Shown: positions 43,963-47,680 of the stretch, in pieces | Layout: each line of letters opens with the position of its first letter | Numbering within the stretch: position 1 is the stretch's first letter | NCBI GenBank assembly: GCA_020721205.1 | Contig: DYNF01000009.1 | Span: forward strand, 1-54,894 | DNA length: 54,894 bases | Direction of reading: 5' to 3' | From: Prochloron sp. SulCav_FS08_3_32_3330 | Lineage (GTDB): Bacteria; Cyanobacteriota; Cyanobacteriia; Cyanobacteriales; DYNF01 | Translations under genes and position numbers: made by a program | The notes under the pieces: model-generated | The model's database searches: none | The model's input: the letters and a program-made list of their open reading frames with translations, nothing else | Told to the model about the DNA's origin: nothing

Positions 43963-46119
43963 ATGGCACATTATAATTTTATTATTCTTGGCTTTTTTTA
44001 TGTAATTGGTTTATTTTCCACCGCAATTTTTGGTTTTCCCTCATTTGAAACTTCTTTAAATAAATGGTTAATTATTATTAGTATAATTTTAACTTTTAAT
44101 ATTATTTCGGCTTTGACTATACCTCGATATTGGCGATTAATACCAAGAGGAAAAATCTGGTTATTAGGAGGAATAATTGCTATTTTAGCAGTAATTTACT
44201 TTCAATTTCGTGTTCCTCATCTTGAAATTAATGATATTAGTCAAATCTTAATTAAAGATAATATATCTAGTGAAATTGTTACCATTAAAGGAAAAATTTT
44301 AGATCAACCTCAACTTAATCAAAAAAATAAAATAAAATTTATTTTAGCAGTTAATCAAGTTAAAAAAGAACAAGAAAAAGAATTTCAAAATGTTAGCGGT
44401 AAAACTTATGTAACTTTACCATTATTACAAGGAAATGGTTTATATATAGGAAAAAAGATTGAGATTACAGGAATATTATATCTACCGAAAACTTCCTCTA
44501 ATCCGGGAGCATTTGATTTTCAATATTATCTAGCTCAAAAAGGAGTTTTTTCAGGAATTAGTGGCAAAAATAGTATAATTAATCTGAAAGAAAAAGAACC
44601 AATTTTTGCCCTTTATAAATTAAGAAAAAGGATCGTTCAAGCTCAATTAAAAGCCTTAGAAAGTCCATTAGGACAATTAGTTAGTTCCGTCGTTTTAGGA
44701 CGTAGTGCCGTAGATTTACCCTATCAAATAAGGGATTTATTTATTAATAGTGGATTAGCTCATGTCTTAGCGGCATCGGGTTTTCATGTAGCTTTATTAT
44801 TAGGAGTAATTCTAAAATTAACTAAAAGATTTTCTAGTAATAATCAATTAATTATAGGAGTAATCACCTTAATTTTTTATATCAGTTTAACAGGTTTACA
44901 AGCCTCCGTTTGTCGAGCCGCTTTAATGGGAGGAGCTAGTTTATTAGGTTTAGTTAATGAAAGAAAAGTTAAACCTTTAGGCTCTTTATTTTTATCAGGT
45001 ATTTTATTATTAATAATTAACCCTTTATGGTTGTGGGATTTAGGTTTTCAATTAAGTTTTTTAGCTACATTAGGCTTAATTCTTTCTGCTTCTAAAATTG
45101 AAAAGAAATTAGATTTTATTTTCCCAGTTATTGCCTCTCCTTTAGCTATTTGTTTGAGTGCCACTTTATGGGTTTTTCCCTTAATTATTTATACTTTTAA
45201 AACCTTTCCTATCTATAGTATTGTCGTTAATTTAATCGCCGATCCTTTCATTATAATTATTAGTTTAGGAGGAATGTTAAGTGCTTTTTTAGCCTTATTT
45301 TTTCCTTCCATTGGCACTTTAATCGCTCAATTATTATATTATCCAACTGATTTTTTAATTAAGATTATTCAATTCTTTAATGCTTTACCCTACAGTAATT
45401 TTGCTTTGGGACAAATTCCTTTAATCTTAATGTTAATTATCTATTTTATTTATACTTTAACTTATCTCAATCAATGGCTTAAGCAAAGATTATCTATTTC
45501 TATTTTATTAACTTTAACTTTAATTATTGTCCCAATTTTATCCAAAAATAATACTTTAATCCAAGTTACGATTTTTGACACAAATCAACCTAATATTATG
45601 ATTCAAAATAAAGGAGATAATCTATTAATTACTCAAGAAAATTATGATGATTTAGCTTATACTATTTTACCATTTTTAGATAGTCAAGGAGTCAATAATA
45701 TTAATAACTTAATTAAATTAGATCAAACAACTTCATTAATTAATAATTATTTAGCCATTAATCAAGAAATTAAATTAACTAAAAATCAAAATATTACTTC
45801 AAAAGCCATAAATCTTAATTTTTCTCATAATAAAATGTTACAATTAAATATTAATAATCAAAATTGGTTATTTTTGTTTAATCTTGATCAGAATTTTACG
45901 ATTAATAATCCTTCAGAAGTATTAATCTGGTGGGGAAATAATATTAATCTTGAATTAATCAAAAAAATCAAACCGAAAATTGCGATCGCCGTCGCCAATC
46001 AAATTAATAAAAATATAGAAAAATATTTAATAAATAATCAAATTAAATTATATTTAACTCAAGAAGATGGAGCGATCCAATGGCAAGAAAAAACAGGTTT
46101 TCAAAGTACCCTAAATTAG
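43963..46119 (+). CDS. comEC: ComEC/Rec2-family DNA uptake channel
   Basis: The 718-residue membrane protein has an N-terminal DUF4131-like part (TSSNPGAFDFQYYLAQKGVF), then the competence core with LAHVLAASGFHVALLLGV, LTGLQASVCRAALMGG and LLIINPLWLWDLGFQLSFLATLGLI. It forms the inner-membrane channel for single-stranded DNA in natural transformation. The C-terminal ~190 residues are where a metallo-beta-lactamase domain usually sits. Here it is AT-rich and has no HxHxDH motif (IFDTNQPNIMIQNKGDNLLI), so the hydrolase site appears lost. No other com gene adjoins. Confidence 0.88.
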   Translation: MAHYNFIILGFFYVIGLFSTAIFGFPSFETSLNKWLIIISIILTFNIISALTIPRYWRLIPRGKIWLLGGIIAILAVIYFQFRVPHLEINDISQILIKDNISSEIVTIKGKILDQPQLNQKNKIKFILAVNQVKKEQEKEFQNVSGKTYVTLPLLQGNGLYIGKKIEITGILYLPKTSSNPGAFDFQYYLAQKGVFSGISGKNSIINLKEKEPIFALYKLRKRIVQAQLKALESPLGQLVSSVVLGRSAVDLPYQIRDLFINSGLAHVLAASGFHVALLLGVILKLTKRFSSNNQLIIGVITLIFYISLTGLQASVCRAALMGGASLLGLVNERKVKPLGSLFLSGILLLIINPLWLWDLGFQLSFLATLGLILSASKIEKKLDFIFPVIASPLAICLSATLWVFPLIIYTFKTFPIYSIVVNLIADPFIIIISLGGMLSAFLALFFPSIGTLIAQLLYYPTDFLIKIIQFFNALPYSNFALGQIPLILMLIIYFIYTLTYLNQWLKQRLSISILLTLTLIIVPILSKNNTLIQVTIFDTNQPNIMIQNKGDNLLITQENYDDLAYTILPFLDSQGVNNINNLIKLDQTTSLINNYLAINQEIKLTKNQNITSKAINLNFSHNKMLQLNINNQNWLFLFNLDQNFTINNPSEVLIWWGNNINLELIKKIKPKIAIAVANQINKNIEKYLINNQIKLYLTQEDGAIQWQEKTGFQSTLN

Positions 46120-46122
46120 ATC

Positions 46123-46192
46123 AAAAAAGGTTCGTTGTTGTGCTTTAGCACCACAAAGTTTAGTGCTAAAGCACAACAACGAACCTTTTTTT
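46123..46192. terminator. Two-way hairpin terminator built from a family-2 repeat
   Basis: AAAAAAGGTTCGTTGTTGTG...CTTTAGCAC and GTGCTAAAGCACAACAACGAACCTTTTTTTT form a near-perfect long stem with A- and T-runs at its ends. It sits between the convergent comEC and hetR genes. Confidence 0.8.
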
Positions 46193-46199
46193 TAGAGAT

Positions 46200-47105
46200 T
46201 TATTCCTTAATACCAAACATCATTTGTAACACCATAGTTTTACCATCTTTTTGATGATATTTATCCGCCCAATTTCTAATAACTTGATCCAATTCTTTTT
46301 GGGCTTGATCTAACTTTTCTAAAGGAATATCTAACTCCTCTAAAATGCGCATAAACTTTGAATTTTTAGTTGACCATTCCCCCATCATCCTAAAATAACG
46401 TGCCGTATCTTCTACCATTGTATAAGTCCTTTCTTCAGGATTTTCAGGAGCATAAAAAGGAGAAATTAAAACATAAAAAGGTAAATTTCCCCCGTAATCA
46501 ATTCTTGAAATTGTGTTAGAATAAATTAATCTTCTCTTAATATGTTCACTTAAAGCTTCACTAATAGATATTCTTTTAGATTCAGGAAAATTTAACTGTG
46601 AACGATCATGTAAATATTCAATTAATTCTAACAATTGCCATGAATTAATTAATTGAGCCGGAGGTAAATTTTGAGGTAATTTTTCCCTAATTTTTATTTC
46701 TTGTTCCGGTGATATATTAATTGGTAAAAAACGGGATTTTTCCGAAGTACAAGGATATTTTTCTAGCCAAACATAAGGAAATTGAATTAAATAACGAGGC
46801 TCTTGAGAACCTAACATTTGAAGCAATTTTCCTTCCGTTAAAGCTTCCTTAACTTCCTGAACAATTTGTCTAACTCTTTTCGCTTCAATATGATGAAGAT
46901 GCCCAGTCATTCTAGCATTTTCATTCTGTTCAATATAAGTAGCATAAACAGCTAATTTAGCGGCAGTAGCGGCGGCTTCTAAAAAAGCTCCGTGACGATG
47001 TCCTCCAGTTCTTAAAGCCGTAAAAGCAAGATAAAATAGTATTTGATCCATTGAACTTGAATTAATACTTTTAATCAGATCAAGATCAGTATTAAGATTT
47101 GGCAT
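46200..47105 (-). CDS. hetR: HetR, master regulator of differentiation
   Basis: 301 residues, strongly similar along the full length to Anabaena HetR as I recall it. The DNA-binding part has GGHRHGAFLEAAATAAK (Anabaena G36 equals G39 here) and RMTGHLHHIEAKRV, then MLGSQEPRYLIQFPYVWLEKYP. The Ser equivalent to S152 is S155 (INSWQLL); SEALSEHIKRRL and VEDTARYFRMMGEW follow. The C-terminal hood with RILEELDI and NWADKYHQKDG holds residues that contact RGSGR peptides in known structures. Cys48 of Anabaena is Leu51 here. HetR activates genes for heterocyst or filament patterning. A patX-like gene lies 230 bp upstream on the same strand. Confidence 0.95.
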   Translation of the reverse strand: MPNLNTDLDLIKSINSSSMDQILFYLAFTALRTGGHRHGAFLEAAATAAKLAVYATYIEQNENARMTGHLHHIEAKRVRQIVQEVKEALTEGKLLQMLGSQEPRYLIQFPYVWLEKYPCTSEKSRFLPINISPEQEIKIREKLPQNLPPAQLINSWQLLELIEYLHDRSQLNFPESKRISISEALSEHIKRRLIYSNTISRIDYGGNLPFYVLISPFYAPENPEERTYTMVEDTARYFRMMGEWSTKNSKFMRILEELDIPLEKLDQAQKELDQVIRNWADKYHQKDGKTMVLQMMFGIKE

Positions 47106-47181
47106 TGTTCGATTCTCTTGAACTTAATTCTCTTAAATTGAAATGTATAATATCAGCAAAATAATATTTTGAAACTAATCA

Positions 47182-47289
47182 TTGTTTAAAAATATTCAAA
47201 TTGTTTTTACCGATTTAGATAATGGTTGTTGCACCCTAAATACTAATATTGCTAAGATTGTGGATCCTAATTTTTATTATAATCTATAA
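47182..47289 (+). pseudogene. Possible HAD-phosphatase remnant
   Basis: An open stretch on the plus strand reads FKNIQIVFTDLDNGCCTLNTNI and soon stops. Its first half matches the start of the HAD gene at 4100 (MKNIKIIFTDLDGTIL) with motif I mutated (DLDN for DLDG). It is only 35 codons and has no normal start, so it is at best a fossil in the hetR leader region. Confidence 0.3.
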
Positions 47290-47334
47290 AAGTCTATTTT
47301 TGAAATTAATTTTTCAGTATTTTTGCTAAAAAAT

Positions 47335-47499
47335 TTAACTTTTGGATTGAGTTTCTCGGTCTCGTCCACTGCCTCTTTCTATTGCTAATTCTGAGAAATT
47401 TTCATCTAAATGGAAAGAATTAATTTGAAAAATATTTGGAATAGCAAAAGAGCTTAAAAGACACAGAAATAAAATTGAGAAAACAGAGTTCTTAGACAT
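47335..47499 (-). CDS. patX: PatX-like small protein with RGSGR pentapeptide
   Basis: A 54-residue ORF. The N-terminus MSKNSVFSILFLCLLSSFAI is hydrophobic like a signal or export segment; the C-terminal part is LAIERGSGRDRETQSKS. RGSGR (residues 42-46, bases 47362-47376) is the pentapeptide of PatS, PatX and HetN that binds the HetR hood and inhibits it. Hydrophobic start plus RGSGR near the C-terminus and a place beside hetR are the described features of PatX in filamentous cyanobacteria. AGAGG lies 11 bases before the ATG. TCCAGA at 47561-47566 on this strand is one base from the DIF1 word TCCGGA, but no good -10 box follows. Probably exported and processed; expected to restrain the neighbouring HetR. 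Confidence 0.85.
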   Translation of the reverse strand: MSKNSVFSILFLCLLSSFAIPNIFQINSFHLDENFSELAIERGSGRDRETQSKS

Positions 47500-47680
47500 G
47501 ATGGAAACAACCTCTTATTAATATAATTGTTGTTTCTCTTTCCCACGTTTTATTCAAGAATCTGGATAATTTTAAAAATAAATTTATCTTTTTTGATAAC
47601 AACTAAAACAATGTTTTATCTATTACAAACAACAAAAACAAACATAGTTTTTTCAAAAAACTATGCTTTTCCCTATTCAT
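47500..47680. other. Leader region upstream of the patX-like gene
   Basis: AT-rich. On the minus strand it has TCCAGA 62-67 bases before the start and TATATT near 47520. A hairpin AACATAGTTTTTTCAAAAAACTATG lies at about 47641-47665, just after the FAD oxidoreductase stop region, and may end that transcript. Confidence 0.4.

What the first reader, a model, noticed from the sequence alone, without database searches (positions are those of the whole stretch)
46200..47499. hetR paired with an unlisted patX-like gene carrying RGSGR
Seen: a 54-residue minus-strand ORF at 47335-47499 with a hydrophobic N-terminus and RGSGR at residues 42-46, 230 bp upstream of a full-length hetR on the same strand. 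Known: RGSGR-bearing PatS, PatX and HetN peptides bind HetR and inhibit it, and PatX has been described as travelling with HetR in filamentous cyanobacteria. Inference: an activator-inhibitor pair exists in this genome. Other genes resemble low-GC, often unicellular, lineages, so its presence may mean a multicellular relative or reuse of the pair for another purpose.
Basis: partly seen in the sequence, partly recalled or inferred. Interest (0 to 1): 0.85.

Follow-up and report, generated by a model that had tools for sequence, protein, structure and literature searches.

The report
Ordinary patX–hetR pair, divergent cyanobacterial lineage
The window carries the well-known pair of a cell-differentiation switch (HetR) and the small exported peptide gene (PatX) that should restrain it; it is the usual arrangement, but in a poorly sampled nitrogen-fixing cyanobacterium whose relatives have mostly lost the pair.

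Summary
A 54-codon ORF (47335-47499, minus strand) with a hydrophobic leader and RGSGR at residues 42-46 lies 229 bp upstream of an intact hetR (46200-47105). It is patX. The same same-strand patX-hetR order occurs in 43 of 61 named hetR loci with at least 4 kb upstream, and never in antisense or downstream controls. The ORF has a DIF1-like promoter box (TCCAGAT, 67 nt before the ATG) matching the TCCNGA box found upstream of nearly all patX genes. The HetR is divergent (at most 65% identical to any other) but keeps all six residues known to bind the PatS hexapeptide. The genome also holds hetZ, a hetZ-related gene, a patU-like gene and nif genes, but no hetP. The pair is best read as a working HetR/PatX regulator of a probably filamentous, non-heterocystous diazotroph, inherited vertically in a clade where most sampled members lack hetR. 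PatX-HetR association is published, so this is a new member of a known kind. One side result is more interesting: within one related genus, two genomes lacking hetZ and any detected patX kept a HetR that has lost RGSGR-binding residues.

The parts
46200..47105 (-). hetR, 301 aa, intact; DNA-binding and RGSGR-binding residues kept
47335..47499 (-). patX, 54 aa small exported-type peptide with hydrophobic leader
47362..47376 (-). RGSGR codons (residues 42-46); preceding E41 makes the hexapeptide ERGSGR, identical to the PatS-6 sequence
   Evidence: PMC4649674 and PMC7761841 for PatS6
47560..47566 (-). TCCAGAT, DIF1-like promoter box starting 67 nt before the patX ATG
47106..47334 (-). 229-bp patX-hetR intergenic stretch; no GGGN5CCC HetR site found in the 700 bp upstream of hetR
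46134..46180 (-). 20-bp hairpin followed by a T run: likely terminator after hetR, between hetR and the convergent gene at 43963-46119

Best explanation
The ORF is patX and forms, with the adjacent hetR, the ancestral HetR/PatX regulatory pair of filamentous cyanobacteria. A DIF1-like, HetZ-dependent promoter (inferred) drives patX and perhaps hetR. PatX is exported through its leader and cut outside the cytoplasm to a hexapeptide, here ERGSGR (inferred from work on Nostoc PatX). The peptide enters the same or neighbouring cells, binds the HetR hood domain and releases HetR from DNA (inferred from the kept binding residues). In this nitrogen-fixing, probably filamentous but non-heterocystous organism the pair would set which cells or positions become specialised, for example necridia or nitrogen-fixing cells. 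Shown here: gene order, motif, promoter box, binding residues, hetZ/patU/nif content, and no HetP family match. Inferred: expression, processing, binding, phenotype and morphology.
For: Same-strand RG[ST]GR ORF upstream of hetR in 43 of 61 named loci with >=4 kb upstream and 59 of 99 other loci with >=1.2 kb (window and its duplicate removed; five genomes are counted twice); 0 antisense, 0 downstream controls. TCCNGA 45-90 nt before the ATG in 57 of 62 distinct patX genes against 3% of shuffled segments; window TCCAGAT at 67 nt, chance 0.002; the patX of G244 has TCCGGA at the same 67 nt. Hydrophobic leader like other PatX. All six PatS6-contact residues kept (sites from PMC4649674). The window differs from the consensus at 20 of 121 conserved DBD and flap columns but 0 of 26 hood columns, Fisher p 0.025. 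hetZ at the NCBIfam cut-off and a HetZ-related gene over it; patU-like ORF beside hetZ, homologous to the ORF downstream of hetZ in 11 of 12 other hetZ loci. Contrast inside genus g29: G244 has hetZ and a patX and keeps five of six sites; G028 and G052 have no hetZ and no detected patX, and their HetR has lost R223, D270 and D278.
Against: No transcript, processing or binding data. The 54-aa peptide is too short and variable for significant sequence similarity; homology rests on position, motif, leader and promoter box. The box differs from DIF1 TCCGGA by one base. In Leptolyngbya BL0902 the transcriptome effects of patX deletion looked largely independent of hetR (PMC11298460), so inhibition of HetR by PatX outside heterocyst formers is not settled. 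PatP, the maturing peptidase, was not searched here.
Confidence: 0.87

Rival explanations
1. The ORF is a relic or chance frame and hetR works alone in this genome.
For: Short ORF, no family match; divergent HetR on a long branch.
Against: Motif in a sense frame about 1e-4 by shuffling; conserved synteny and promoter box; hood-domain residues kept, whereas HetRs from two genomes of genus g29 with no detected patX lost them.
Confidence: 0.05
2. The pair is real but has been taken over for another task in a non-filamentous cell, for example timing of nitrogen fixation by autocrine signalling.
For: The genome lies in a clade where 18 of 25 sampled genomes lack hetR; nif genes present, HetP not found; HetR has changed fast in the DBD and flap. 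A unicellular strain with a HetR ortholog, Synechococcus PCC 7335, is known (PMC2821919).
Against: hetZ, HetZ-related and patU-like genes, part of the filament core set, are all kept. Morphology unknown.
Confidence: 0.12
3. hetR and patX were acquired horizontally from a filamentous donor.
For: Patchy presence in the local clade.
Against: HetR groups with G003 and G029 (SH-aLRT 92, but long branches meet) and RpoB groups G000 with G029 (84); hetZ copies lie elsewhere in the genome; no near donor, best identity 65%.
Confidence: 0.05

Closest known systems
PatX (PatX-HetR pair of filamentous cyanobacteria; Elhai and Khudyakov 2018, as cited in PMC7761841 and PMC11298460)
   Same: Small ORF with hydrophobic leader and RGSGR, upstream of and on the same strand as hetR, with a DIF1-like box about 60 nt before the ATG.
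   Different: Short (54 aa); hexapeptide ERGSGR rather than the commoner HRGSGR; box is TCCAGAT rather than TCCTGAT or TCCGGAT; the 229-bp gap is among the shorter ones.
PatS (Nostoc/Anabaena PCC 7120)
   Same: Contains the ERGSGR hexapeptide.
   Different: PatS is 17 aa with the motif at its C-terminus (PMC12756182, PMC7761841); here there is a hydrophobic leader and eight residues follow the motif.
HetR (Anabaena/Fischerella, PDB 4ynl, 4yrv, 3qod)
   Same: Full length; all PatS6-contact residues kept, DNA contacts kept with one conservative change (K76R).
   Different: About 60-65% identical to other HetR; below the NCBIfam equivalog cut-off.

Membership tests
PatX | Small protein with RG(S/T)GR | tested here: met
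   54 aa, RGSGR at 42-46
PatX | N-terminal Sec-type leader | tested here: inconclusive
   Hydrophobic 15-mer, mean 2.6, at residues 6-20; no signal-peptide predictor was run
PatX | Found with hetR, usually just upstream on the same strand | tested here: met
PatX | DIF1-type promoter | tested here: inconclusive
   TCCAGAT at 67 nt; one base from TCCGGA, within the TCCNGA range of 57 of 62 patX
PatX | Export and PatP cleavage to a hexapeptide that binds HetR | not testable with these tools
   shown for Nostoc in PMC12756182
HetR | S48 core plus HetR_C hood domain, full length | tested here: met
   301 aa
HetR | NCBIfam HetR equivalog score cut-off (an annotation threshold, not a biological feature) | tested here: not met
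   467 against 489 bits over the full length; all contact residues kept and Pfam cut-offs passed
HetR | PatS6-contact residues R223, E253, E254, D256, D270, D278 | tested here: met
Heterocyst-forming genotype | HetP family commitment protein | tested here: not met
   no match in G000, present in 18 of 60 relatives
PatS | Motif at the C-terminus of a 17-aa peptide | tested here: not met
   54 aa, eight residues follow the motif, hydrophobic leader

The most novel reading that the evidence does not exclude
The HetR/PatX pair, kept with hetZ, a patU-like gene and nif genes but without HetP in a lineage whose relatives mostly lost hetR, patterns nitrogen-fixing cells without heterocysts, an intermediate between ancestral filament patterning and heterocyst patterning.
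Probability: 0.15. Interest if true: 0.65.

Novelty: new member of a known kind. Interest (0 to 1): 0.3.

Why it matters
It extends the HetR/PatX pair to a family-level lineage with no close relative in the held genomes, in a part of the tree where most sampled genomes lack hetR, and in a diazotroph without a HetP match. It fits the pair being ancestral with repeated loss. The contrast found in passing (genomes without a detected patX whose HetR lost RGSGR contacts) offers an evolutionary test of whether PatX is the ligand HetR is selected to bind outside heterocyst formers, which the one transcriptome study left open.

Tried and rejected
The degenerate start pattern gave nothing beyond the genome handle. 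The promoter scan for sigma-70 sites was no better than shuffles. No GGGN5CCC HetR site was found near hetR or patX. A similarity search with the G244 PatX found nothing convincing in its congeners, but so short a query is weak. No structure prediction was run because solved HetR-peptide structures already define the site.

Full report
Observation. The 54-aa product starts at an ATG at 47499, has a hydrophobic stretch at residues 6-20 and RGSGR at residues 42-46, preceded by E, so it contains ERGSGR, the PatS-6 hexapeptide. It ends 229 bp before hetR on the same strand. HetR is full length and matches both HetR Pfam domains, but scores under the NCBIfam equivalog cut-off (467 against 489 bits) and is at most 65% identical to any HetR found.

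Chance. In shuffles of the 575-bp intergenic region that keep its dinucleotide make-up, a sense-frame RG[ST]GR appears about once in 10,000. In the whole genome the degenerate DNA pattern has 68 hits. I translated 41 stretches around hits, all 30 that had loci plus 11 that the printed letters could encode as RG(S/T)GR; none is an ATG-started small ORF with a leader. The remaining hits were excluded by eye.

What it is. Of 61 named hetR loci with at least 4 kb upstream, 43 have a small same-strand RG[ST]GR ORF upstream; of 99 other loci with at least 1.2 kb, 59 do (window and its duplicate left out; five genomes occur twice). The antisense and downstream controls give none. Published work states that patX accompanies hetR in filamentous cyanobacteria (PMC7761841, PMC11298460, PMC12756182). 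Upstream of patX, a TCCNGA box lies 45-90 nt before an in-frame ATG in 57 of 62 distinct genes (window included), mostly TCCTGAT, six TCCGGAT; shuffles give 3%. The window has TCCAGAT at 67 nt; L109 has the same variant. The chance of such a box in that slot is 0.002. DIF1 (TCCGGA) promoters of patS, patX and hetR depend on HetZ in Anabaena (PMC7377430).

HetR. The PatS6-contact residues R223, E253, E254, D256, D270 and D278 (PMC4649674) are all kept (window numbering is +3). Of the DNA-contact residues only K76 is changed, to R, as also in G003 and G029. Against columns at least 95% conserved, the window differs at 10 of 70 in the DNA-binding domain, 10 of 51 in the flap and 0 of 26 in the hood (Fisher p 0.025). 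So the protein has diverged quickly, but not where the peptide binds.

Genome. G000 has nifH, nifD, nifB, nifE and nifN, hetZ at its cut-off and a HetZ-related protein over its cut-off, and a patU-like ORF beside hetZ with a homologue downstream of hetZ in 11 of 12 other loci. No HetP family match was found. hetR, hetZ and patU3 are in the ten-gene filament core of PMC2821919; that paper also notes a HetR ortholog in Synechococcus PCC 7335, so these genes suggest but do not prove filaments. The genome is alone in its family among held genomes. The RpoB tree puts it in a clade of 25, 18 without hetR, next to G029, which has hetR and hetZ (SH-aLRT 84). The HetR tree groups it with G003 and G029 (92) but warns of long branches. 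Vertical inheritance with losses elsewhere is the simpler reading.

Side result. In genus g29, G244 carries hetZ, a HetR with five of six contact residues, and a patX divergent to hetR with TCCGGA 67 nt upstream. G028 and G052 have no hetZ, no RG[STA]GR ORF in the 4.5 kb upstream of hetR and no convincing match to the G244 peptide; a patX elsewhere in them is not excluded. Their HetR is about 46% identical to the window's, keeps all six DNA contacts and has lost R223, D270 and D278. Other divergent HetRs without a nearby patX (G086, G097, and the second copies in G205 and G247) keep five or six contacts, so lack of a nearby patX does not by itself predict loss of the site.

Verdict. An intact patX-hetR pair, a new member of a known kind. 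Its function in this organism is inferred, not shown.

Noticed in passing
L221:4941-5885 (G028), L222:4821-5765 (G052), L226 (G244): Within one genus, two genomes without hetZ and without a detected patX keep a HetR whose DNA contacts are intact but whose RGSGR contacts R223, D270 and D278 are lost, while the congener with patX and hetZ keeps them.
   Followed up: partly
L027, L028, L036, L078, L079, L080, L228, L230: PatX proteins with three to nine RG(S/T)GR repeats in Leptolyngbya-, Leptothoe- and Adonisia-type genomes and others, possibly multi-peptide precursors.
   Followed up: no
upstream of patX in most loci: Beyond the TCCTGAT box, the patX leader has further conserved blocks (GTATCAG, TAGACAC, CACGGA) just before the ATG in many Oscillatoriales; weak or absent in the window.
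   Followed up: partly
G030 and G053 (family f31); G008; L223, L224: Strong HetZ or HetZ-related matches in genomes without a HetR match.
   Followed up: no
G205:C7:79404-80294, G247:C66:14055-14931: Second, divergent HetR copies (about 40% identical) without a nearby patX that still keep five of six RGSGR contacts.
   Followed up: no
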